From a virus: 20,198 nt of DNA. Shown piece after piece: positions 3,270-15,134 of the stretch (position 1 is its first letter; each line of letters opens with the position of its first letter). The position numbers and the translations under genes are program-made. The stretch spans positions 1 through 20,198 of IMG/VR virus record IMGVR_UViG_3300050026_000081; one strand, written 5' to 3'. Under the pieces are notes generated by a model. The model was not told where the DNA came from and made no database searches. It saw only the letters and a list, made by a program, of their open reading frames with translations.

Positions 3270-3662
3270 ATGGCTTTCGAGCAGCCGCTTTTCGCACCCG
3301 CGGGCCTGGTTGCCAACAGCGACCTGAGCGCCAAGGGGTACATCTTCGTCAAGATGGTCGGCGACATGCTGGTCGACGCTTGCAGCGCCGTAACAGACAA
3401 GCCGATCGGGGTCGTCCAGAACGCACCGGCAGCAGGGCAGACAGCTGAGGTCTTATCACTCGGTGTCAGCAAGCTGCAGGCCGGATCTAGCGACCTGGAC
3501 TTTGGGAATTCGATCGGCACGGACGCAAGCGGCAACGGGGTGCCGTACACGGAGGGCGCAGACACGACCAAGTACATCTGCGGCCAGGTGATTAGCACCG
3601 GCGTCGCCGGGGCGGTCGCTTCCGTGGCGATCAACTGCATGGTTCCGCACCGGGGGGCGTAA
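3270..3662 (+). CDS. Small capsid decoration/stabilisation protein (inferred)
   Basis: A 130-residue protein with AAAAGGGGG upstream of ATG 3270. It is rich in Gly, Ala, Val and Ser, predicted mainly beta, with no membrane segment. The patterns LSAKGYIFVKM, DKPIGVVQNAPAAGQTAEV and near the end TGVAGAVASVAINC recall DUF2190-like and other small proteins encoded just before the major capsid gene, which bind the outer capsid surface. Its place between scaffold and major capsid protein is the classical position for a decoration protein. The role is inferred from position and composition; no residue proves it. Confidence 0.65.
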   Translation: MAFEQPLFAPAGLVANSDLSAKGYIFVKMVGDMLVDACSAVTDKPIGVVQNAPAAGQTAEVLSLGVSKLQAGSSDLDFGNSIGTDASGNGVPYTEGADTTKYICGQVISTGVAGAVASVAINCMVPHRGA

Positions 3663-3686
3663 CAGAAAAGGTTAAGACGCAAGACC

Positions 3687-3710
3687 AAAGAGCGCCAAGG
3701 GGCGCTTTTT
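3687..3710 (+). terminator. Intrinsic terminator between decoration and major capsid genes
   Basis: Stem AGCGCC (3691-3696) pairs with GGCGCT (3701-3706) around the loop AAGG, extended by AAAG (3687-3690) against TTTT (3707-3710). It lies within the head operon only 34 bases before the capsid start. I see no promoter between it and the capsid gene, so it probably attenuates or trims the mRNA, or is passed by antitermination. Confidence 0.75.
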
Positions 3711-3743
3711 GATTTGAACCCAAAACAGGAAGGAGTGTAAACG

Positions 3744-4745
3744 ATGCCGCAACCGACTTATTCACAGATCCACGTAAATGTACCGTTGACATTTATGTCA
3801 ATCGCGTACATTCAGGCCGCGGAGGGCTTCATCGCAGACAAGGTCTTCCCGCTCGTCCCGGTGGACAAGCAGAGCGACCGCTACTACACCTACAACAAGA
3901 ACGACTTCATGAGGGATGAGGCGCAGGAGCGGGCACCCGGAACTGAATCTGCAGGCGGTGGGTACAACCTGGACAACACGCCGTCATACTACTGCACCAT
4001 CTGGGCGTTCCATAAGGACGTTGCCTGGTATCTTAGGGCGAACGCCGATGCCGTGCTGGACATGGACAGGGACGCCAGCATCTTTATTACCCAGCGCATG
4101 CTGATCAGCAGGGAACGTCAGTGGGTCAAGGCGTACTTCCAGCCGGGCGTCTGGGGAACGACCGTTCAGGGCGTCGCATCGGGGAACGTCCCCGGGGCCA
4201 GCTTCATTCAGTGGAGCGACTACATGAACAGCGACCCGATCACAGACATCAGGGTCGGCCGCATGATGGTCAAGCAGCAGACCGGCTTCCTGCCGAATGT
4301 GCTGACGATGTCGGAATACGTGTTCGAAGTCTTGAGCAACCACCCGGATATCGTCGACCGCTACAAGTACACCACGAACAGCGTGATTACCGAGGAGATG
4401 CTGGCGAAGCTCTTCCGGGTCGACCAGCTGGTGGTGGCGGGCGCGGTCTACGCAAGCAACGAGGAAGGCCAGACGGCACAGTATCAGTTTATCAGCTCCA
4501 ACCATGCGCTGTTGTCCTACGCACCGAAGAGCGCAGGCATCTTGCAGCCGAGCGCGGGGTATGTCTTCGCATGGCGCGGTCTGACCGGCAATATGGTCGA
4601 CCGGCAATCGGCCGGCTACGCGCTGGCGATCGACAAGTTCCCGATCAGGCGGCTCAAGGTCGACCGGGTCGAGGGAGAGATGGCTTACTGCTGCAAGCAG
4701 ACAGGGTCAGACCTGGGCTATTTCTTCGAGAACGCAGCCGCCTAA
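3744..4745 (+). CDS. Major capsid protein
   Basis: A 333-residue protein with Shine-Dalgarno AAGGAGTG before ATG 3744. The sequence runs PLVPVDKQSDRYYTYNKNDF, RDEAQERAPGTESAGGGY, then FHKDVAWYLRANADAVLDMD, DRDASIFITQRMLISRERQW, and further on QTGFLPNVLTMSEYVFEVL and TEEMLAKLFRVDQLVVAGAV. This series is characteristic of a major capsid protein family of Gram-positive siphophages and prophages, presumed HK97-fold. Hundreds of copies form the shell. There is no long N-terminal delta domain, in keeping with a separate scaffold upstream. It is the most confidently identified head gene in the window and anchors the interpretation of its neighbours. Confidence 0.92.
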   Translation: MPQPTYSQIHVNVPLTFMSIAYIQAAEGFIADKVFPLVPVDKQSDRYYTYNKNDFMRDEAQERAPGTESAGGGYNLDNTPSYYCTIWAFHKDVAWYLRANADAVLDMDRDASIFITQRMLISRERQWVKAYFQPGVWGTTVQGVASGNVPGASFIQWSDYMNSDPITDIRVGRMMVKQQTGFLPNVLTMSEYVFEVLSNHPDIVDRYKYTTNSVITEEMLAKLFRVDQLVVAGAVYASNEEGQTAQYQFISSNHALLSYAPKSAGILQPSAGYVFAWRGLTGNMVDRQSAGYALAIDKFPIRRLKVDRVEGEMAYCCKQTGSDLGYFFENAAA

Positions 4746-4773
4746 CAAGCGGTAGCGGCAGGGGGCGAACCGA

Positions 4774-5082
4774 ATGGAACAGCAAGTCGTGCACAGGCGC
4801 TTTACATCTGGCGGCGTCTACCGTCAGAGCGGCGAGGTAGTCGAGCCGGTGGGTCTTACGGACGTCCGGCTCAAGAAGATGCAGGGCCAGCGCTACCTCG
4901 CTCCCTACACGGGGAAGGCTTTCGAGTGCTCCAGCTCCGGGTGCGATCGGAAATTCAGCACGCCGGAGCTGCTCGAAGGCCATACGCTGGAGGCGCATAC
5001 GAAAGGGGGGCAAGACAGCAATGAGATCACTACCGGGAACGACAAAAGCCCAGCGACTAATCGTGCAAAACCGGTTCGATAA
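4774..5082 (+). CDS. Small virion-region protein with a classical C2H2 zinc finger
   Basis: A 102-residue protein starting at ATG 4774 after AGGGGGCGA. Residues 52-75 fit the full C2H2 consensus: C52-x4-C57-x3-F61-x5-L67-x2-H70-x4-H75, including the hydrophobic core Phe and Leu. Before it is a compact basic/hydrophobic region (GVYRQSGEVVEPVGLTDVRL). The last 20 residues are polar and their DNA is shared with the next gene (62-base overlap, 5021-5082). It sits immediately downstream of the major capsid gene, where head accessory or connector proteins are found. Function unknown: it could bind DNA, be a structural zinc site in a head accessory protein, or act as a regulator. It is short but looks genuinely coding up to the overlap. 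Confidence 0.75.
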   Translation: MEQQVVHRRFTSGGVYRQSGEVVEPVGLTDVRLKKMQGQRYLAPYTGKAFECSSSGCDRKFSTPELLEGHTLEAHTKGGQDSNEITTGNDKSPATNRAKPVR

Positions 5083-6028
5083 ACCGGCGCACGTGGTGGC
5101 AGGGGTGGCTGGATGGGAAGCTGAGACATTCATCGAGATCTTCTCGGACGGCTCGCTGCAGCAGGCGGCAGCCAACAGCCAGAACGTCATCGGCGCAGCG
5201 AAGGATAACGTGGTGGTCGGCGGTAGCGGATTCCTCGATACAGAGGGGATCATCACCGTGCTGGCCGATTCATCGGCGATCGCAGCGCTGGCAGCGGTCA
5301 AGGTCGGCAGCAATGGGCGAGCAACGGCGCTTAACACTTCGGCGCTCACCCTAAACGCTGTGGAGACCGGGACAGCTACAGCATTCACGCAATCGGGGGC
5401 AGGAAAAGTAACTATCCAGCAGGCGGTAGACACGCCGGGCGACCGTGGCAGGGGCATTGTGATCGTGGGGGCGAGCGCAGCAGGAGCGGCCCAGTTCGAG
5501 ACGATCGTGCTGGGCAACCCAACCACGACCGTGGTGTCGAGCGCACTGACGTATTCAACGATATCCGGAATGTTCATGGCGGACGGCCGCAACCTGGGCG
5601 CAAGCAACGTGACGCTGAAGACGGCGGCAGCAGGGACGGCGACGATTGCCACGCTGACAGGTGGCACGAGCCAGAAGGGTGCACAGATACCGACGTCGAT
5701 CGAGGCATTCTGCGAGCAGGTCACGCACACGAACAGCGCCGATGCAGTAGACGTGACGCACCTGACATTCTACGGCTACAATGCCAGCAACGTGCTCACG
5801 GCAGAGCGGGACGTCCTGGCTGGGGGCGGCGTGGCAGCGCTGGCCGCTTGCACGACAACCGCATTCTGGAAGCAGGTGCTCCGCATCTGCACAGGGGAAT
5901 TCACGAACGCAGCGACAGGGGTGCTGACCACCGTAGCCGACGCAGCAGGCCTGAAGGTTGGCAGGGCGCTGTCGGCACCGGCAGCAGAGGGCGCAGCGAT
6001 GCAGGTCTACCTGACGCCGAACGTCTAA
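5021..6028 (+). CDS. Ala/Thr-rich virion protein, probable head decoration or head-fibre type
   Basis: A 335-residue protein at ATG 5021 (Shine-Dalgarno AAAGGGGGG upstream). The start lies inside the preceding gene. The N-terminal ~100 residues include VITVLADSSAIAAL-type sequence followed by AVKVGSNGRATALN, a pattern common in DUF2190-like decoration proteins. Residues ~110-200 are Thr/Ser/Ala/Gly-rich and probably beta. The last ~120 residues (TSIEAFCEQVTHTNSADAVD, LTFYGYNASNVLTAERDVLA) look like a separate folded domain. No membrane segment or enzymatic motif is seen. Placed between the major capsid protein and the connector, it is most likely exposed on the capsid. That is inference; a tail-related structural role cannot be excluded. 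Confidence 0.6.
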   Translation: MRSLPGTTKAQRLIVQNRFDKPAHVVAGVAGWEAETFIEIFSDGSLQQAAANSQNVIGAAKDNVVVGGSGFLDTEGIITVLADSSAIAALAAVKVGSNGRATALNTSALTLNAVETGTATAFTQSGAGKVTIQQAVDTPGDRGRGIVIVGASAAGAAQFETIVLGNPTTTVVSSALTYSTISGMFMADGRNLGASNVTLKTAAAGTATIATLTGGTSQKGAQIPTSIEAFCEQVTHTNSADAVDVTHLTFYGYNASNVLTAERDVLAGGGVAALAACTTTAFWKQVLRICTGEFTNAATGVLTTVADAAGLKVGRALSAPAAEGAAMQVYLTPNV

Positions 6029-6041
6029 GGGGGCGGCCAGC

Positions 6042-6518
6042 ATGCCAGAGACATTTCCGCTGACGGCAATGAGCGGAGACTGGACCTATAACGCCCAGCC
6101 GGACACAATCCCGCTGGACGAGGTTCGGATCGAGATCGGCGACGTCGACCCAACAGATCCGCAGCTCCGGGATACGGAGATTAACCACTATATCAACATC
6201 TACGGCAACCGGGGGAATGCGGCAATCTATGCAGCGATCGCCTGCTGCCACGCACTGGCGGCAAGGTACAGCCGCAAGGCAAACAAGGCGATTGGCAAGC
6301 TGAGGATCGACCTTTCCGACATCGCCAAGAGCTACCGGGACCAGGCGCTGGCGCTCAGGAGCCGGTCGGGTGTCACGGTGCAGCCTTTTGCAGGCGGCAT
6401 GGACCTCTCGGACAAGGACGCATACTTCCAGAACACCAGCATCACTCAGCCGCTTTTCACCAGGGCCATGATGAGCATCAACCAGGATGAGACGAACGAA
6501 CCGATTCTGCCGGACTAG
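6042..6518 (+). CDS. Head-tail connector (adaptor) protein
   Basis: A 158-residue protein beginning at ATG 6042 after GGGGGCGG. The N-terminal pattern WTYNAQPDTIPLDEVRIEIG, DVDPTDPQLRDTEINHYI, followed by GNRGNAAIYAAIACCHALAA and a helical KLRIDLSDIAKSYRDQALAL, is typical of the gp6/gp15-type adaptor family that sits under the portal in siphophages. The C-terminus (TQPLFTRAMMSINQDETNEP) is the usual tail. It begins a run of four joining genes in standard order (adaptor, stopper, tail-completion, tail terminator). Confidence 0.85.
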   Translation: MPETFPLTAMSGDWTYNAQPDTIPLDEVRIEIGDVDPTDPQLRDTEINHYINIYGNRGNAAIYAAIACCHALAARYSRKANKAIGKLRIDLSDIAKSYRDQALALRSRSGVTVQPFAGGMDLSDKDAYFQNTSITQPLFTRAMMSINQDETNEPILPD

Positions 6519-6531
6519 GAGGCGACCGGAC

Positions 6532-6879
6532 ATGGACAGGGACCTGATCGACCTCCTGAATTTGCAGGTCACGATCAACCCGTGCACGGATGTCAACGAA
6601 TATGAGGAGCCAGTCTACGGATCGGCTCCAATTGTTTTGCCGTGCTACGTCGACAGCACGATCAGGATGATCTACAACAAGGAAGGCCTGCTGGTCACGA
6701 GCACGGCGCAGGTCTATCTGAACAACACGTACATCGACGGCGACGGCAACACGCAGCCGGTGACGATCGGAGAACGGGATCAGATCACGCTGCCGAACGG
6801 GAAGCAGCCGCTCATTTTGGGCATCCTCCCATCTTACGACGAGCAGGGAAATCTTTACGCCTGGGAGATCGATACATGA
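6532..6879 (+). CDS. Head closure / stopper protein
   Basis: I start at ATG 6532, which has an AGGAGGCGA site at 6518-6526; the longer frame upstream lies inside the previous gene and is arginine-rich nonsense. The product is 115 residues, mostly beta: MDRDLIDLLNLQVTINPCTD, AQVYLNN, RDQITLPNGKQPLILGILPS, YAWEIDT. Length, beta-barrel character and position after the adaptor match SPP1 gp16-like stopper/head closure proteins. The stop overlaps the next start as ATGA (6876-6879), indicating translational coupling. Confidence 0.75.
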   Translation: MDRDLIDLLNLQVTINPCTDVNEYEEPVYGSAPIVLPCYVDSTIRMIYNKEGLLVTSTAQVYLNNTYIDGDGNTQPVTIGERDQITLPNGKQPLILGILPSYDEQGNLYAWEIDT

Positions 6880-7490
6880 GCGACAAGATTATCATCAAGG
6901 TCAAGGGGCTGGATGAATTTTACAAACTGCTGCAGCAATCAGGGAAACAGGCACCGCAACTGGCGGGGCAATGCCTATACCCGGAATGCGAGATCATCAT
7001 GACAGACAGCAAGGATAAGTACTGCCCGGTGCTGACGGGAGCGCTACGTACCACAGGACGGGTCGGGGAGCCAGCAGTGGAGGGCAAGTCGGTCACATGC
7101 GAGCTAAGCTACGGGGGACCGGCTGCGCCCTACGCTCTGGCGGTGCACGAGGGATATCCAGCACACACGATCACGGTCAAAAACAAGAAGATACTGGCTG
7201 CGCCGGTCGCGACGTATAAGGGGAAGACGCCGCCGAGCGCTTATGGATCAGGCCAGTTTCCGATGCTGAGCAAGGATGGGAATTTCGTCCTGTTCGGTAA
7301 AACGGTTCACAACCCGGGCTACAAGGGCAAGAAGTATCTGTCGATGCCAATTAATGCAGCGCTGCCGGGGCTGCCAGCGAAGCTGCTGGCTCGGTTGCAG
7401 AAGATTCTCTTTAAACAGCAGAGCAATTCCTCAGGGACGGAGCAGACGCTGGAGAGCGGCGGCGAGACCGGCGAGGCAACCACGGAATAG
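6876..7490 (+). CDS. HK97 gp10-like tail-completion / minor structural protein
   Basis: Coupled start at ATG 6876 (ATGA overlap), giving 204 residues. The N-terminus IIIKVKGLDEFYKLLQQSGK is the typical opening of gp10-like proteins. It is followed by CPVLTGALRTTGRV and GPAAPYALAVHEGYPAHTI, the conserved core of that family. The last ~25 residues are Ser/Glu/Thr-rich and disordered (NSSGTEQTLESGGETGEAT). The insert around residues 80-165 (YKGKTPPSAYGSGQF, GYKGKKYLSMPI) is the loop and end of the core. The family acts at the head-tail interface, just before the tail terminator gene, as here. Confidence 0.8.
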   Translation: MSDKIIIKVKGLDEFYKLLQQSGKQAPQLAGQCLYPECEIIMTDSKDKYCPVLTGALRTTGRVGEPAVEGKSVTCELSYGGPAAPYALAVHEGYPAHTITVKNKKILAAPVATYKGKTPPSAYGSGQFPMLSKDGNFVLFGKTVHNPGYKGKKYLSMPINAALPGLPAKLLARLQKILFKQQSNSSGTEQTLESGGETGEATTE

Positions 7491-7973: not shown

Positions 7974-8384
7974 ATGAGCAGTTCTATCTCAGGCAAGAAT
8001 GGAGCGGTCATGCTCGGAACGAACAAGGTCGCCGAGATCAGCGACTGGACGATGGACTTCGACGTCGACAACGTCGATGTGACGAGCTTTGACAGCGCAG
8101 GTTGGAAAGAATTCCTGAACACGCTGGTCGCATGGTCAGGCAAGCTGGAAGGTAACGCGGTCCCGGGCGACACGACCGGCCAGCAGGCGATATTCATGGC
8201 AGCAACCAATGGGGCGTCCGGCGCAGCGACGCTGGCGGCGGTCTTCAAGATGACGACAACGGTGCCTACATTTACAGGCACGATACTCGTCAAGAAGGTC
8301 AGCTACGATGTGCCGGTGGCAGACAAGGTCAAATTCAGCGTGGACTACCAGGGCACAGGAACGCTGACCCCGGCATGGTCATAA
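7974..8384 (+). CDS. Tail tube protein, first paralogue
   Basis: A 136-residue protein, ATG 7974 after GAGAGGAG. SGKNGAVMLGTNKVAEISDW, then DFDVDNVDVTSFDSAGWKEF and VKKVSYDVPVADKVKFSVDY are the familiar short tail tube pattern of Gram-positive siphophages. It shares DVDNVDVT-F-SAGWKEFLN, W-GK and KK-SYDVPV with the protein encoded at 8578-9195. Predicted all-beta, no membrane segment. Many copies would stack into hexameric rings around the tape measure. Which of the two paralogues is the main tube subunit cannot be told from sequence; this shorter one has the minimal domain. Confidence 0.85.
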   Translation: MSSSISGKNGAVMLGTNKVAEISDWTMDFDVDNVDVTSFDSAGWKEFLNTLVAWSGKLEGNAVPGDTTGQQAIFMAATNGASGAATLAAVFKMTTTVPTFTGTILVKKVSYDVPVADKVKFSVDYQGTGTLTPAWS

Positions 8385-8399
8385 GGGCGGGTGACTAAA

Positions 8400-8672
8400 A
8401 TGACAACCCTGAAGTATCTGGGACCAGGGCTGTACGTTGACCCGCGCTTCATGGCGCACCAGGGGAACCTGGTCGCATTCACGGACAGCGAGGCAGAGCA
8501 GCGCCTCAAGGAGAAGGCACCGGACGGCAGGGACAAGTGGGCACGGACGACGCCGGAAGCGCAGGGGGTGAAGACCGATGGCGATATCGGGGAAGACCGG
8601 GGCAGTTTACGTGCCGAGTGGAGAACCGGTGACTTTCAGCAACCAGGCGACGATACCGGACTCGACATATAA
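8400..8672 (+). CDS. Small phage tail-region protein
   Basis: I choose ATG 8400 (Shine-Dalgarno AAGGGCGGGTGA just upstream) over GTG 8391, giving 90 residues. MTTLKYLGPGLYVDPRF, then QGNLVAFTDSEAEQRLKEKA resembles small phage proteins of the type 'YTGP...G..v.v.dE.AerLl', found near connector or tail tube genes. The last ~31 codons (8578-8672) lie over the start of the second tube gene in another frame and are not informative. Between two tube paralogues its role is unknown. Confidence 0.6.
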   Translation: MTTLKYLGPGLYVDPRFMAHQGNLVAFTDSEAEQRLKEKAPDGRDKWARTTPEAQGVKTDGDIGEDRGSLRAEWRTGDFQQPGDDTGLDI

Positions 8673-9195
8673 CAATTACAAGATCGTCAACGACGCCTAT
8701 TCATGCTTGGTGCCGGGGTCGGTAACGACAGTCAAGGTGAACGGCACTATCCAGACGACAGGGTTCGTCGTCGAAGGCGCAGGCGGCAACATTTACTTCC
8801 CGGTGGCGCTTACGTCGGGCGACGTGGTGACGGTTTCGGGCTTTGCGCAGCCGATGACACAGGCCGGAGGCTTCTTTGAATGGTCAATCGACATGGACAT
8901 TGATAACGTCGACGTAACAACATTCGAGAGCGCCGGTTGGAAGGAATTCCTGAACGTCTTGGTTAGCTGGAGCGGCAAGGCGCAGCGGTACTGGGGAGAC
9001 AGCATGTTCTGGGAAGCGCTGGCAGCAGAAGCGCCGATGTGCCTGGTCTTCTATTTACAGACAGGCAGCACGAAGGATAGACTGCAGACATACGGGCTGA
9101 TCAAGAAGCTCAGCTACGATGTGCCGGTGACAGGGGTAGTCAAAGAATCGATCGACCTTCAGGGCAGCGGGGCGCTGTTCTACAGACAAAACTAG
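8578..9195 (+). CDS. Tail tube protein, second paralogue with N-terminal insert
   Basis: A 205-residue protein, ATG 8578 after GGGGGTGAAG. It opens with SGKTGAVYVPSGEP like the first tube protein, then an insert of ~75 residues (residues ~15-90, YNNYKIVNDAYSCLVPGSVT, VKVNGTIQTTGFVVEGAGGN, FPVALTSGDVVTVSG), which is a known kind of tail tube add-on domain. The shared core follows: EWSIDMDIDNVDVTTFESAG, WKEFLNVLVSWSGKAQ, IKKLSYDVPV. The start overlaps the small gene before it by 95 bases in another frame. This could be a second tube subunit, a tube-initiator or tube-tip ring, or a surface-decorated tube protein. Confidence 0.8.
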   Translation: MAISGKTGAVYVPSGEPVTFSNQATIPDSTYNNYKIVNDAYSCLVPGSVTTVKVNGTIQTTGFVVEGAGGNIYFPVALTSGDVVTVSGFAQPMTQAGGFFEWSIDMDIDNVDVTTFESAGWKEFLNVLVSWSGKAQRYWGDSMFWEALAAEAPMCLVFYLQTGSTKDRLQTYGLIKKLSYDVPVTGVVKESIDLQGSGALFYRQN

Positions 9196-9209: not shown

Positions 9210-9599
9210 ATGCGAATCGAAAGGGCAACAGTGGGCACCCGGCAGATCGAGATCAGAGAGAAGAAGATCAGCGAGATCCGGGAGGAGATCATTCCGAAAA
9301 TCGAGGGGTTGTTCAACGGCCTGGATAAGCTGAGCACGAAGGATCTGGTCGGCATGTTCGAGGACAAGCTGATTGACTTCATACCAGAGCTGACGCTCAG
9401 CGACATCGAGGACGGATATCCGTCCGAGATCGAGAGGGTTGTGGAGGCATGGCTGCGCGTAAATTTTACTGGCGTGCAAAAGGTAATGAAGTCGCTACTG
9501 CCTTTAGCACAGATGGGTACGCAGCGCTTTCTCTCGTCGTCGGCGCAGAGTTTGGCTGGCGACCCAGCGACATCGGAGACTTCTACGCCAGTGATCTAG
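9210..9599 (+). CDS. Tail assembly chaperone (gpG-like)
   Basis: A 129-residue protein, ATG 9210 after AGGAGAGG. It is highly charged and helical (IREKKISEIREEIIPKIEGL, LIDFIPELTLSDIEDGYPSE, IERVVEAWLRVNFTGVQKVM), with a disordered Ser/Thr tail, and sits between tail tube and tape measure. This position, size and overlap with a second ORF in the -1 frame are the hallmarks of the lambda G/GT chaperone pair that wraps the tape measure. The family is divergent, so the call rests mainly on synteny plus the slippery site at 9461-9467. Confidence 0.8.
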   Translation: MRIERATVGTRQIEIREKKISEIREEIIPKIEGLFNGLDKLSTKDLVGMFEDKLIDFIPELTLSDIEDGYPSEIERVVEAWLRVNFTGVQKVMKSLLPLAQMGTQRFLSSSAQSLAGDPATSETSTPVI

Positions 9600-9856
9600 A
9601 AGCAGTCCTGAAGCGGCTGCCGGAGATGCGGAAGGCCAGGTCATACAGGGAAATCTACCCGGCCGCATTTTTGGCAGCCTCTGTTTATAACATGTTCAAG
9701 GGGAAGAAAGATGCGGCAGCGAAACCGGAGGACTACATCGGAGAGCCGCCTTGGAAAAACAAACAGAATGCCAAAGAAACAGCGCCTGACGACCCAGCGG
9801 CGGAGCAGGCGCTTATTGAAGACGCAAGAGCGAAAGGACTCAGTGGTCCGTGGTGA
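9449..9856 (+). CDS. Tail assembly chaperone, frameshift-encoded C-terminal part (gpT-like)
   Basis: This ORF is the -1 frame of the 9210 gene. The ATG at 9449 is a poor start: GGAGG (9443-9447) leaves only one base. Protein-like sequence begins at the slip (KFYWRAKGNEVATAF). The likely product is the fusion of 86 codons of the first ORF with ~129 codons of this one, about 215 residues. The T part, GWRPSDIGDFYASDLEAVLK, KARSYREIYPAAFLAASVYN, has the helical character and size of gpT domains. The last ~30 residues are charged and disordered. It directly precedes the reverse gene (17-base overlap) and the tape measure. Confidence 0.75.
   Translation: MAARKFYWRAKGNEVATAFSTDGYAALSLVVGAEFGWRPSDIGDFYASDLEAVLKRLPEMRKARSYREIYPAAFLAASVYNMFKGKKDAAAKPEDYIGEPPWKNKQNAKETAPDDPAAEQALIEDARAKGLSGPW
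9461..9467 (+). promoter_or_regulatory. -1 programmed ribosomal frameshift heptamer A AAT TTT
   Basis: In the reading frame of the 9210 gene the codons are GTA-AAT-TTT-ACT, so bases 9461-9467 form A AAT TTT, matching X XXY YYZ with X=A and Y=T. Slipping back one base gives AAA-TTT-TAC and continues in the frame of the downstream chaperone ORF. The -1 frame is open from 9377 to 9856. Confidence 0.75.
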
Positions 9857-10094
9857 GCTGGCTATCTCGCCAGGAATAACCGCAATCCCGGCAATGGTAA
9901 CTGTTCTTTGTCGGCACCTTGAAGAAGGCGACGAGAGCGAGCAGCGCAAACGGGATGGCGATCACTTTGGCGATCAGGCTAGGGATCGCCAGGCAGATCA
10001 AAACGATGATCACAAAGAAGAGACCGTCTACCCAGCCAGCAGAAGCGCGCACGCGGGGCGAATTGCAGCGGGGGCATGGTGTCCAGTTATTCAT
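9840..10094 (-). CDS. Reverse-strand membrane zinc-ribbon protein (probable moron)
   Basis: This is the only supported gene on the reverse strand. ATG at 10092-10094 is preceded on that strand by AAGGAGGAAATTCCAA, a full Shine-Dalgarno at good spacing. The 84-residue product has CPRC (C7, C10), then two hydrophobic segments (about 24-42 and 44-58, GLFFVIIVLICLAIPSLIAK and VIAIPFALLALVAFF), then CRDCG (C68, C71). The four Cys form a zinc ribbon interrupted by a transmembrane hairpin, so both zinc halves face the same side. It overlaps the end of the chaperone ORF by 17 bases and has its own promoter-like boxes and palindromes. Unrelated to morphogenesis by sequence and orientation, it looks like a lysogen-expressed cargo gene affecting host envelope or superinfection. 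Function is unknown. Confidence 0.75.
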   Translation of the reverse strand: MNNWTPCPRCNSPRVRASAGWVDGLFFVIIVLICLAIPSLIAKVIAIPFALLALVAFFKVPTKNSYHCRDCGYSWRDSQLTTDH

Positions 10095-10116
10095 TTGGAA
10101 TTTCCTCCTTTCACGA

Positions 10117-10136
10117 TAACGTTCCCGTAACGTTAC
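10117..10136. promoter_or_regulatory. Operator-like tandem palindromes upstream of reverse gene
   Basis: AACGTT occurs at 10118-10123 and 10129-10134, 11 bases apart (one helical turn). The second copy is the core of the perfect 10-base palindrome GTAACGTTAC (10127-10136). They lie between the putative -10 box and the Shine-Dalgarno of the reverse gene, a suitable place for a repressor. Confidence 0.45.
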
Positions 10137-10139
10137 CAT

Positions 10140-10171: not shown

Positions 10172-13042
10172 ATGCCCGGAGCAGGTGGAGCAGCGCAGCA
10201 GATATTATTCAGCATGGGGATCGACACGACGCAGTATGGCCAGGGGCTGGATACAGCGGGCAACAAAATGACCAGCTTCGTGTCGGGTGTCAAGAACGGC
10301 CTCAGCCAGATGGCAAGCTCGCTGATAGGTATCGGGGCAGCAATTGGGAGCGGCTTTGGCATAGACAAACTATTGCAGAACGCCACGAGCTACGGCAGCA
10401 CGCTTTATGATCTTCAGACGAGAATGAATATGACATCTTCGCAGGCGGCACAATTCGCTAACATGCTCCAGCTGGCAGGTACGAGCAGCGACTCGTTCTC
10501 AACGGCGATGGAACGTCTCGACCGGAGCTATGAATCAAGCAGCACGGCCGGAAACCTGGCGAAGAATACACTGGATGCGCTGGGCGTCAGCCTTAAGAAC
10601 GGCGCAACGGGACCGTTGAAGAGCTGGAACGATCAGCTGGCGGCGCTGGCGAAAGGGTATCAGATAGCGAATGCTGGGGGATATGGTCAGGAATTCATGA
10701 CTAACGTCTTCGCAGCACGAGGCACGGACATGGCCAGCCTGCTGCAAAATTACCAGGCATATAATGCAGCAGCTTCGCAGGTGACGGACAGCGGCATGAG
10801 CACCACGCAGGCCAAGCAAACACAGGTTGACATGGATTCACTGAAGATATCGATGGAACAGCTTGGATATGTGGCGTCAGCATCGCTGATGCCGATAGCG
10901 ACGACAATCATACCACCGCTTGTAAAAATCATCGGCATGCTGGCTGTGGCTTTAAGAAGTGTGATGCCCTACATTTTGGGGCTGGCTGCGGTGCTGGGCA
11001 CGCTCTCGGTGCTGGTACTGGCACGGACGTGGATCATATGGTTTGTGGACGGATTATCCATGATGATGAAGTCGGAGACGGTGGCGGCAGCGGTCACAAT
11101 TCTCCGAAACGCGATCCTGGCATTAAACGTCGCATTTGAGGAGAACCCGATCGGGCTGATCTTAGGAATAGTGGCAGCGCTTATCTTGCTTGGCTTGGCA
11201 GCGATGGGCGTCGACAAATGGCTCACGAAGATCGCACAGGATACCAATACCGCCTTTCAGCAGGGCATGGGACAGAACATGACGACGCTCAACAAGCAAA
11301 TGCAGGACGCACTGAACAACGTCCAGAAGCTGGGGGCCAGCTTTGACGAGCTGTACCAGGTCGGAACGGATATGGATCTCCCCAATCTGGCTGATTTGCC
11401 CGGTCAGGGTGGCGGAACGACGACAACACCGACAGGCGGCGGAGGGCCATCGCCAAAAACAGTACCGACAGTGATGCCGAATGCTCCGTGGAAACCGCAG
11501 AAACCACCGAGCGGGGGCGGACCTGGAGGCGGCGTCCCGATCGTGGTACCGCCGCCACCGGAGGGCGCATGGGACTCATTCTGGGAGAAGATCAAGAAGA
11601 ACTGGGACGAGGTCAAAAAGAAGTTGGGTCAGGCATGGCCGCCAATTCCTGTCCCGGATCTGGGTGCTGCGCTGGCAGCGGTTTGGGCGAAGGTCGTAGC
11701 AGACGCGCTGAAGGCGAGGCAGGACATCGAGAACGCACTCAGGGGGCTGAACCCTTTCCCGACGCTTGAGGCGCTCGGAGCAGCAGCATGGGCGAAAGTT
11801 AGGGCTGACGCCCAACAAGCAGGTAGAGACATCGAGAACGATCTCAAGGGGATCAACCCGTTTCCGGCGCTGGAAGCGATGGCGGTAGCGGCATGGGCAA
11901 AGATCAAGCTGGATGTCAAGAACGCAGCATCAGCGATCGGGAGCGCGCTCAAGGACATCAACCCGTTCCCGATTCTGGAAGCAGGGCTGACGGCAGCGCT
12001 GGCGTGGATGCTCAATGCATGGAAGAAGCACAGCACGCTGATCATCGCAATCTTCGTCGGCCTCGGGGTAATTCTGGTCACAGTTTTGTCAGGCGGCCTG
12101 GATATTGTAGGCGCAGCTCTCGCAGCGCTGGGCGCTGCTTTTGTCTCAGGCTTCGGAGCGATTGCAGTGGGGGCAGAAGGAGCGGCGTCAGTCATGGGGC
12201 TGGCGATCGGGGGTGGCCTGGCCGCGCTCGGAGTGCTGGCGGCACATTTCAAGGATCAGATAATTGGCTTCTTTCAGGAGATCCCAGCGAAGGCGCAACA
12301 GGTATGGCAGGATATCGCTACGTCATACACGAGCCTGATAGGACAGCTGCCAACTGAAACGAGCAGCGTGGTCGACAGCATAAAGGGCTTCTTCGCTGGC
12401 ATCGGGGCAGGTTGCTCTCAGGAATTCCAGGCGATTGTTCAGGCATTCTCAAGCTGGGTCGGACAGCTGCCGGGGATCGCGCAGGGCATAGTTCAATCGG
12501 TCATCGGAGAGTTTCAGAGCATTGTGGCAGATGTATCCAGCATTTTCAATAGCATCGTTAGCGACGCCAACAACGTCGTGAGCAGCATACGGGGCGTGGT
12601 CGGCAGCATGGGCAGCGCCATTGGCAGCGCTTTTGGCGGCGGCAGCAATACACCCATGCAAGGAGCCAGCGGCGCTGTACCGGCCATGCCGCAGGGCAGC
12701 ACATCGCTGGGATCGATGTGGGCGCAGGAAGGGATCATACCGAGCTACGGCACAGGCGGCGAGGTTTCTAGCCCACAGCTGGCGCTGGTCGGCGAGGTTC
12801 CCGAGTACATCATTCCGAAGTCGCAGCTTTCGGGGATGCTCGGCGCAGCGGCGGCCGGAGGGGGCGGCAGCGGGGCGCAGATAGACTATGCAGCGATGGG
12901 GACAGCAGTAGCGGCGGCGCTTGGCTCGGCAAAGATCGAGGCAATATTCGCGCCGACGCGGGCCGGGCTGCTCAACCTTAACAGGCAGATGCAGCCGGTC
13001 AACCAGGCTGAGACGCTGCGGAGGGGAGGCGCAACCTCGTGA
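10172..13042 (+). CDS. Tail tape measure protein
   Basis: A 956-residue protein, ATG 10172 after AAGGGGG. The N-terminus is helical and Ser/Ala-rich (DTTQYGQGLDTAGNKM, QTRMNMTSSQAAQFANMLQL), with hydrophobic stretches around residues 240-300 and 320-350 and again ~620-690. A Gly/Pro/Thr-rich linker (~410-467) leads to three tandem 35-residue repeats (497-601). The C-terminus has LALVGEVPEYIIPKSQ (~870-886), the 'GE.GPE.IIP' signature of tape measure proteins. It fixes tail length and probably takes part in DNA passage through the membrane. It is the longest gene of the window. The stop overlaps the next GTG start (GTGA, 13039-13042). Confidence 0.93.
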   Translation: MPGAGGAAQQILFSMGIDTTQYGQGLDTAGNKMTSFVSGVKNGLSQMASSLIGIGAAIGSGFGIDKLLQNATSYGSTLYDLQTRMNMTSSQAAQFANMLQLAGTSSDSFSTAMERLDRSYESSSTAGNLAKNTLDALGVSLKNGATGPLKSWNDQLAALAKGYQIANAGGYGQEFMTNVFAARGTDMASLLQNYQAYNAAASQVTDSGMSTTQAKQTQVDMDSLKISMEQLGYVASASLMPIATTIIPPLVKIIGMLAVALRSVMPYILGLAAVLGTLSVLVLARTWIIWFVDGLSMMMKSETVAAAVTILRNAILALNVAFEENPIGLILGIVAALILLGLAAMGVDKWLTKIAQDTNTAFQQGMGQNMTTLNKQMQDALNNVQKLGASFDELYQVGTDMDLPNLADLPGQGGGTTTTPTGGGGPSPKTVPTVMPNAPWKPQKPPSGGGPGGGVPIVVPPPPEGAWDSFWEKIKKNWDEVKKKLGQAWPPIPVPDLGAALAAVWAKVVADALKARQDIENALRGLNPFPTLEALGAAAWAKVRADAQQAGRDIENDLKGINPFPALEAMAVAAWAKIKLDVKNAASAIGSALKDINPFPILEAGLTAALAWMLNAWKKHSTLIIAIFVGLGVILVTVLSGGLDIVGAALAALGAAFVSGFGAIAVGAEGAASVMGLAIGGGLAALGVLAAHFKDQIIGFFQEIPAKAQQVWQDIATSYTSLIGQLPTETSSVVDSIKGFFAGIGAGCSQEFQAIVQAFSSWVGQLPGIAQGIVQSVIGEFQSIVADVSSIFNSIVSDANNVVSSIRGVVGSMGSAIGSAFGGGSNTPMQGASGAVPAMPQGSTSLGSMWAQEGIIPSYGTGGEVSSPQLALVGEVPEYIIPKSQLSGMLGAAAAGGGGSGAQIDYAAMGTAVAAALGSAKIEAIFAPTRAGLLNLNRQMQPVNQAETLRRGGATS
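11660..11974 (+). repeat. Three tandem 105-bp (35-residue) repeats in tape measure
   Basis: Copies 11660-11764, 11765-11869 and 11870-11974 each encode a helix with Trp-Ala-Lys at positions 9-11 and end in (G/D)-(I/L)-Asn-Pro-Phe-Pro-x. They are diverged at DNA level but exactly in register, suggesting old internal duplications that change tail length by a fixed unit. Confidence 0.85.
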
Positions 13043-13511: not shown

Positions 13512-15134
13512 GTGATAGCAGTATCGGACGCGTACAAGGCAGCGATCATGGCACCGAACCGCAACATCATACCGAAGGTGCTCGTTTACTTCGACGGGGA
13601 CGATGCAACACCGGTCGAGTTCGACAGAGCAGGCTGCACCCAACTGCATCTTCTGGACGAGGTAGGGGCAGACACAAGCAACCCGCTGGGGCTGGTAAGC
13701 GCGAACGAATTGACGGCAGGCCTTAACAACCAGGGGCGACCGCTCACGCCGACAAACGTGGACTCGCCGTACTATGGGCTGCTGACGCCGAACATTCTGG
13801 TCAAGGCATATATGGGTGTACAGGTGGTCATGACGACATGGGCGGCATACACGGGCGCAGCGCTGGACTCGCTGATTGCACCGACAATGCAGAGCGGATG
13901 CTACTACAAGAACACGGCAGCGGACGCAACGACGGGACGATTAGAACCAGTATGGCCTACGACGGTCGGAGAGACGGTAGGAGACGGCAGCGCGGTATGG
14001 CAATGCATGGGGCCGCTATTCGAGGAGATACCGCTCGGCGTTTTCAGGACGACGGACTGGTCGACGCCCAGCGCCACGCTTGAGGCAACGGTCGTCTGCG
14101 AGGATCTGCTTTACCAACTAGGGCAGCTAAATGTGCCAATGCTGCACGTGCTGCAGAACACGACGATCGGCGGATTGTTCGCGCTGCTCTTTACGGCGCT
14201 CGGCTTAACAGAAGATCAGTACGAGATCGACGCAGGACTAGACCAGCCGGTGACCATCGGCTGGATACCAGACGACAGCTATTCGACGGTGGCCAACACG
14301 ACGACGACATCGGAGACCACCAACTCAGTCACGGGGGCGACGACGACGACGCCGGTCCTGGACGCGCTGCAGGCGCTGGCGGTCGCAGGGTGCTGCTGGG
14401 TCACGTGCAACCGCTATGGCAAGATCAAAGTACAGTCTATCTTCACGCCGGACACGCCGGTCACAACATGGGACCAGGGCAGCATGATCGACGGAGCAGA
14501 CAACCCACAGAAGTATCTGAACATTTACAGCCAGGTCGTGGTCAATTACAACATGCCATACATCCAGGACTCGGAGACGGTGCTGGAGTTGCAGAACCAG
14601 GTCATTCCGAGCGGGACGACAACGCTGGCCAACCTCTGCTTTACAGACGGTCCGGTGGTCAACGTGGACTCGGTCACGCTGAGCGGAGCGGTCACATCTC
14701 GGATCACGGGGATCGCATGGGGAGCTTGGACGCTCACCCTAACAGTAGAGAATTCAGGCGCAACGGAGACGGTCGACGTGGTGGCGATCGGCGAAGCGGT
14801 AGGGCTGATCACGGCAACAGCGACGGCAACGGATGCGCCGACCGTGGCGCTGATCGGCGTCAAGACGCTGACAGTTAGCTGCCCGCTAATTCAGGACCAG
14901 GCAACAGCGACGGAGTACGCGGCGACGCTGCTGAGCTTTTGCAAAGACCCAACAGTGCAATTCTCGGTCGACACTAAAGGCGACCCGGCCGTTGAGGTCG
15001 GCGACGTGATACAGCTCCAGGACACGATCGACAAGATCGGCACGGTCGACGTGGTGCCGATCAGGGTACAGCTAGACTACGACGGCGGTCTGACAGGGCA
15101 CATTGACGCACGCAAGCCGGTAGAACCGGCATAA
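13512..15134 (+). CDS. Tail hub / baseplate-like tail protein
   Basis: A 540-residue protein from GTG 13512 (AGGAGG upstream). Residues ~28-105 (VEFDRAGCTQLHLLDEVGAD, TPTNVDSPYYGLLTPNIL) and then IPLGVFRTTDWSTPSATLEA and CEDLLYQLGQL are the standard N-terminus of a tail hub/tail-tip family. The C-terminus GDPAVEVGDVIQLQD and QLDYDGGLTGHIDARKPV is the matching end. A ~70-residue insert (about 110-175, YYKNTAADATTGRLEPVWPT, VWQCMGP) is the short beta unit often seen in phage fibres. No peptidase motif is visible. The protein should close the tail tube and carry the receptor-binding proteins downstream. Confidence 0.75.
   Translation: MIAVSDAYKAAIMAPNRNIIPKVLVYFDGDDATPVEFDRAGCTQLHLLDEVGADTSNPLGLVSANELTAGLNNQGRPLTPTNVDSPYYGLLTPNILVKAYMGVQVVMTTWAAYTGAALDSLIAPTMQSGCYYKNTAADATTGRLEPVWPTTVGETVGDGSAVWQCMGPLFEEIPLGVFRTTDWSTPSATLEATVVCEDLLYQLGQLNVPMLHVLQNTTIGGLFALLFTALGLTEDQYEIDAGLDQPVTIGWIPDDSYSTVANTTTTSETTNSVTGATTTTPVLDALQALAVAGCCWVTCNRYGKIKVQSIFTPDTPVTTWDQGSMIDGADNPQKYLNIYSQVVVNYNMPYIQDSETVLELQNQVIPSGTTTLANLCFTDGPVVNVDSVTLSGAVTSRITGIAWGAWTLTLTVENSGATETVDVVAIGEAVGLITATATATDAPTVALIGVKTLTVSCPLIQDQATATEYAATLLSFCKDPTVQFSVDTKGDPAVEVGDVIQLQDTIDKIGTVDVVPIRVQLDYDGGLTGHIDARKPVEPA

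What the first reader, a model, noticed from the sequence alone, without database searches (positions are those of the whole stretch)
9840..10094. Reverse-strand membrane zinc-ribbon moron between chaperone and tape measure
An 84-residue protein with CPRC ... transmembrane hairpin ... CRDCG is encoded against the direction of the late operon, with its own consensus Shine-Dalgarno. Independent transcription in the lysogen is likely, so it may alter the host envelope, exclude other phages or signal membrane state.
Basis: partly seen in the sequence, partly recalled or inferred. Interest (0 to 1): 0.65.

Follow-up and report, generated by a model that had tools for sequence, protein, structure and literature searches.

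The report
Antisense membrane zinc-ribbon phage gene
A small membrane protein gene with a split zinc-binding motif sits backwards inside a phage's tail genes; distant relatives in unrelated phages occupy the same spot, or lie beside the prophage repressor, so it is probably a stand-alone 'extra' gene that may let a carried virus protect its host cell from other phages.

Summary
An 84-codon ORF on the minus strand (9840-10094) has a consensus Shine-Dalgarno and encodes CPRC, then a transmembrane hairpin, then CRDCG. It fills the 315-nt gap between the lambda-T-like tail chaperone and the tape measure.

It first looked like an orphan. A step-wise search then found a small, uncurated family: seven further proteins from Bacillus-type plasmids and four other viruses. 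All four cysteines are invariant. Every member is recovered by a profile of the others (E 1e-12 to 1e-25; best decoy 0.2). A close pair shows purifying selection (dN/dS about 0.11).

In two other phages with unrelated tail genes (L117, L127) the homologue lies in the same slot, also antisense. In a temperate phage (L126) it lies between the CI-like repressor and the integrase, and there the tail slot is closed.

These two places are where tape-measure-dependent exclusion genes sit in HK97 (gp15) and TP-J34 (Ltp). I therefore judge it a real moron, probably expressed in the lysogen, and most likely a superinfection-exclusion protein. Exclusion, lysogenic expression and zinc binding are inferred, not shown. 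No sigma-70 promoter was found, and this 20-kb fragment has no lysogeny genes.

The parts
9840..10094 (-). 84-aa split zinc-ribbon / transmembrane-hairpin protein (P0001), antisense to the late operon
   Evidence: homologues; leave-one-out profile
10065..10076 (-). first zinc knuckle, C7-P-R-C10
   Evidence: C7, P8, C10, S12, R14 invariant in 8 of 8 family members
9918..10034 (-). transmembrane hairpin, about residues 21-59
   Evidence: hydropathy; AlphaFold2 helices 21-36 and 42-59, 21-36 and 40-58
9882..9893 (-). second zinc knuckle, C68-R-D-C71
   Evidence: C68, D70, C71 invariant in 8 of 8
10104..10111 (-). Shine-Dalgarno AAAGGAGG, 9 nt before the ATG
   Evidence: read directly
10115..10137 (.). 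imperfect 23-bp inverted repeat with two AACGTT cores 11 bp apart, between gene start and tape-measure start; candidate operator, noticed after the fact
   Evidence: only exact match in the window
9210..9599 (+). tail assembly chaperone G-like (context)
   Evidence: position; only weak family hits (phrog_1161 E 0.18)
9449..9856 (+). tail assembly chaperone T-like, -1 frame relative to G (context; convergent 17-bp overlap with the reverse gene)
   Evidence: Phage_tail_T 27.7 bits; slippery A AAT TTT at 9461
10172..13042 (+). tape measure protein (context)
   Evidence: phrog_2276 E 2.5e-14 and others

Best explanation
The gene is a moron: a mobile, stand-alone prophage-type gene that can sit in the gap between tail chaperone and tape measure, where the antisense strand is free while the late operon is silent in a lysogen. 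It encodes an inner-membrane hairpin whose two ends both face the cytoplasm. There the two CxxC knuckles close into one zinc ribbon under the membrane. The most likely job is superinfection exclusion at DNA entry: it occupies the inner-membrane site (or a host entry factor, or the incoming tape measure) that related phages need, and so blocks genome passage. Shown here: the gene, its family, the conserved cysteines, the repeated slot and the lysogeny-module relative. Inferred: topology, zinc, lysogenic expression, exclusion.
For: Family with four invariant cysteines. Leave-one-out profile recovers each of 8 members, E 1e-12 to 1e-25, against the best decoy at 0.2. Same antisense slot in L117 (tail chaperone phrog_9001 and tape measure phrog_13339) and L127 (Phage_tail_T and tape measure). 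The window's chaperone and tape-measure proteins do not match theirs, so the slot is not simply an inherited tail block. In L126 the homologue lies between a CI-like repressor and a tyrosine integrase, after a small lipoprotein-like and a membrane ORF. That contig carries terminase, portal and tape measure, and its chaperone T frame ends about 9 bp before the tape measure, a closed slot. HK97 gp15, a known moron, is annotated in the same gap; [quoted passage not shown] TP-J34 ltp lies between int and the cI region and is transcribed in the prophage, and the tape measure is reported as its target (PMC3952083). dN/dS about 0.11 between L112 and L119.
Against: No sigma-70-like promoter. No sequence similarity to gp15 or to any PADLOC model. 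The window contig has no repressor or integrase. Homologues also occur on plasmids without obvious phage context (L113, L114), which a phage-only role would not predict. Lysogeny modules and this tail gap can host many kinds of moron.
Confidence: 0.4

Rival explanations
1. Lysogenic-conversion or stress protein: a prophage- or plasmid-borne membrane zinc-ribbon that alters or senses the host envelope (a LITAF-like membrane adaptor), unrelated to excluding phages.
For: Homologues on Bacillus pumilus and Halobacillus plasmids with no evident phage structural genes beside them. Zinc ribbons usually bind protein or nucleic acid (general knowledge), and the model aligns around the hairpin to RPB9 and NrdR ribbons (Z about 3). 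The L127 member touches zf-LITAF-like below cut-off (16.6 against 23.8 bits).
Against: Repeated placement in the tail slot and beside repressor and integrase fits phage-phage conflict at least as well; no host target is known.
Confidence: 0.3
2. Late or lytic function: a membrane protein made during lytic growth (assembly, lysis timing or tape-measure handling), or self-protection against its own tail proteins.
For: Located in the tail block in three phages, and beside lysis genes in Priestia plasmid pG5MAi6_3 and L119.
Against: Always opposite to the late genes in those places; in L126 it is in the lysogeny module, and that phage and others (Javan370, HHU-22) lack it in the tail slot.
Confidence: 0.15
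3. Antisense RNA control: the transcript opposing the chaperone end matters, and the protein is secondary.
For: Convergent overlap with the chaperone stop in window, L117 and L127.
Against: The protein is conserved where no tail gene is opposed (L126, plasmids); dN/dS about 0.11.
Confidence: 0.05
4. Spurious ORF.
For: Codon score lower than the structural genes.
Against: Family conservation, repeated slot, invariant cysteines.
Confidence: 0.01

Closest known systems
HK97 gp15 moron (superinfection exclusion)
   Same: Small predicted membrane protein encoded between tail chaperones and tape measure (PMC10883804)
   Different: gp15 is 62 aa, in the sense orientation with a putative terminator of its own, and has no sequence similarity; its exclusion phenotype is published, this one's is untested
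TP-J34 Ltp / lactococcal Sie2009 type exclusion genes
   Same: The L126 relative lies between repressor and integrase, the place of ltp (PMC3952083)
   Different: Ltp is a surface lipoprotein; this protein shows no lipoprotein signal and carries a split zinc ribbon
zf-LITAF-like (PF10601), membrane-inserted zinc ribbons
   Same: One zinc ribbon interrupted by a hydrophobic membrane segment (general knowledge of the family)
   Different: The window protein does not match the model at E 10; the L127 member is below cut-off; hydrophobic part long enough for two spans
HK97 gp23 'reverse moron'
   Same: A moron on the strand opposite the late genes within a tail region
   Different: Another place in the tail block; sequences not compared

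Membership tests
Phage moron | Present at a site where related phages lack it | tested here: met
   Slot filled in window, L117, L127; closed in L126's phage, which shares a tail protein with the window; no antisense gene annotated there in Javan370 or HHU-22, whose tape measures resemble L117's
Phage moron | Own promoter and terminator | tested here: inconclusive
   Consensus SD, but no sigma-70-like promoter near it; host promoter type unknown
Phage moron | Expressed in the lysogen | not testable with these tools
   No transcript data; placement in L126's lysogeny module is indirect support
HK97 gp15 exclusion protein | Sequence relationship to gp15 | tested here: not met
   No alignment at E 100
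HK97 gp15 exclusion protein | Gene between tail chaperone and tape measure, membrane protein | tested here: met
HK97 gp15 exclusion protein | Blocks DNA entry of related phages | not testable with these tools
   Needs plaquing and DNA-entry assays
Ltp-type exclusion lipoprotein | Signal peptide and lipobox | tested here: not met
   Sequence read directly: no N-terminal hydrophobic signal segment before C7
zf-LITAF-like (PF10601) | Match above the Pfam cut-off | tested here: not met
   No match for the window; L127 homologue 16.6 against 23.8 bits
Zinc ribbon fold | Two CxxC knuckles forming one metal site | tested here: inconclusive
   Knuckles invariant in 8 of 8; model (pLDDT 71) aligns around the hairpin to RPB9/NrdR/VdcD ribbons at Z 2 to 3; zinc not tested
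Known anti-phage defence families (PADLOC) | Match to any model | tested here: not met
   No hit at E 10

The most novel reading that the evidence does not exclude
A previously unnamed family of phage- and plasmid-borne inner-membrane proteins in which one zinc ribbon is split by a transmembrane hairpin, carried antisense in the chaperone/tape-measure slot or in the lysogeny module, and acting as a metal-dependent exclusion device against tape-measure-mediated DNA entry.
Probability: 0.3. Interest if true: 0.65.

Novelty: new variant of a known kind. Interest (0 to 1): 0.52.

Why it matters
It gives a defined, testable family where curated libraries (Pfam, NCBIfam, PADLOC) had no model for the window protein and PHROGs only weak partial matches. 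The recurrence of one small membrane protein in the two places where tape-measure-dependent exclusion genes are known in other phages would, if function follows, extend exclusion morons to a new architecture and make the chaperone/tape-measure gap a place to search for more of them.

Tried and rejected
Close relatives of P0001 in viral contigs: only the same virus, 99.98-100% identical. Genome contigs: none. Phage records: nothing convincing. Capsid relatives: the best one, L011 (89% capsid identity), has a different, contractile-looking tail and no such gene; none of the others carries it by tblastn. RNA structure upstream: no better than shuffled. Foldseek against viral and PDB libraries: no match under E 0.001. 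PF10601 membership rejected. PHROGs 19462 and 3845 match the L117 member weakly, not the window. A bacterial host could not be assigned; genome searches by taxon could not be centred on a plasmid or Bacillota locus. The first leave-one-out run used one misframed training sequence; one search replaces it.

Full report
What is there. The minus-strand ORF at 9840-10094 is exact: 84 residues with CPRC near the N-terminus, about 39 hydrophobic residues, and CRDCG near the C-terminus. AAAGGAGG stands 9 nt before its ATG. To its left is the lambda-T-like chaperone (9449-9856, Phage_tail_T 27.7 bits), overlapped convergently by 17 bp. To its right is the tape measure, from 10172. The space between the two plus-strand genes is 315 nt, and the reverse gene plus 77 nt of upstream DNA fills it. 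The record is a 20.2-kb virus contig; three other contigs hold the same virus (99.98-100% identical).

Is it a gene. By composition alone it is plausible but not compelling: best of the three minus-strand frames, GC3 0.72, but a codon score below the structural genes. The architecture is rare: in 1.16 Mb of related phage loci read in six frames it occurs twice, this ORF being the only strong case. The deciding evidence is homology. A tblastn of plasmid records gave weak but near full-length matches with the same architecture in Priestia, Bacillus pumilus and Halobacillus (ORFs). An alignment of these (A2) then pulled viral contigs L117/L118 (35% identity, E 3e-13) and L119. The next alignment (A3) pulled L126 and L127. 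In the eight-member alignment C7, P8, C10, S12, R14, C68, D70 and C71 are invariant. A profile built from the other members recovers each held-out member at E 1e-12 to 1e-25, against the best of 10,910 decoys at about 0.2. The Priestia and L119 copies, 88% identical in protein, give dN 0.063 and dS 0.57, so the protein is under purifying selection.

Where the relatives lie. L117: the homologue (739-1029 +) lies antisense between chaperone ORFs (1186-1560 - and 983-1183 -; the latter matches tail assembly chaperone phrog_9001) and the tape measure (671 leftward; phrog_13339 E 1e-29). L127: the homologue (5995-6237 +) lies antisense between tape measure (3287-5929 -) and chaperones (6230-6559 -, Phage_tail_T 34.7 bits; 6571-6921 -, phrog_2115). 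The gaps are 315, 311 and 300 nt in window, L117 and L127. Chaperone and tape-measure sequences of the three do not match each other. L118, the sister contig of L117, has an HK97-type major head protein (phrog_10), unlike the window's (phrog_1005). So the same place is used in unlike phages. L126: the homologue follows a CI-like repressor with a peptidase S24 domain, a small lipoprotein-like ORF and a membrane ORF, and precedes a tyrosine integrase, all in one direction. That contig also encodes terminase, portal and tape measure, and its chaperone T frame ends about 9 bp before its tape measure, so its tail slot is closed. One of its tail proteins is 33% identical over 537 columns to the window's 13512-15134 product. 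Priestia pG5MAi6_3 and L119 carry the gene beside the lysis genes, opposite to them, and behind small HTH regulators. L113 and L114 are plasmid copies without obvious phage context.

Structure. Two AlphaFold2 models (single sequence; five sequences) agree: strand, two helices, two strands, at moderate confidence (pLDDT 71-73). VIA-align looped the hairpin out and matched about 41 residues spanning 2-81 to zinc ribbons of RPB9, NrdR and VdcD, at Z only 2 to 3. This fits one ribbon split by a membrane hairpin, with both ends on the same side. It does not prove it, and zinc is untested.

How it most likely works. The slot is antisense to a late operon that would be silent in a lysogen, and a relative sits in a lysogeny module. 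The same two places hold known exclusion genes: HK97 gp15 in the chaperone/tape-measure gap (annotated moron) and TP-J34 ltp between int and the cI region, transcribed in the prophage (PMC3952083). Both act at DNA entry in a tape-measure-dependent way (PMC10883804; the tape measure is named as the Ltp target in the title of Bebeacua et al. 2013, cited there). From this I infer, at about 0.4, that the protein excludes related phages at the inner membrane. A host-envelope or stress role (0.3) and a lytic role (0.15) remain.

Limits. No sigma-70-like promoter was found. A 23-bp inverted repeat at 10115-10137 could be an operator, but it was noticed after the fact. No transcript, localisation or phenotype data exist here. 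The gp15 paper itself was not held; what is said of it comes from the HK97 record and a later paper. The sequence does not resemble gp15 and matches no PADLOC model, so it is not filed under either.

Noticed in passing
window 9210-9856: Chaperone G and T ORFs overlap in the -1 frame, with a slippery A AAT TTT at 9461 inside the overlap; a lambda-like programmed frameshift is likely.
   Followed up: partly
window 7974-8384 and 8578-9195: Two neighbouring tail-tube-like genes share short DNA repeats (33 bp at 94% identity between 8290 and 9101), suggesting a duplicated tail tube gene.
   Followed up: no
window 11717-11982: Internal direct repeats of about 104-bp period within the tape measure gene.
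   Followed up: no
L011 (IMGVR_UViG_3300037993_000022): Capsid genes close to the window's (89% capsid protein) joined to a tail that looks contractile, without the moron: head-tail module exchange.
   Followed up: partly
L126 5905, 6296, 11314: TTTCACGTGAAA palindrome three times, on both sides of the homologue, one just before the integrase; possible operator.
   Followed up: no
L127 10055-12226: Reverse transcriptase (phrog_1423) next to an ORF that may end in a variable domain; looks like a diversity-generating retroelement.
   Followed up: no
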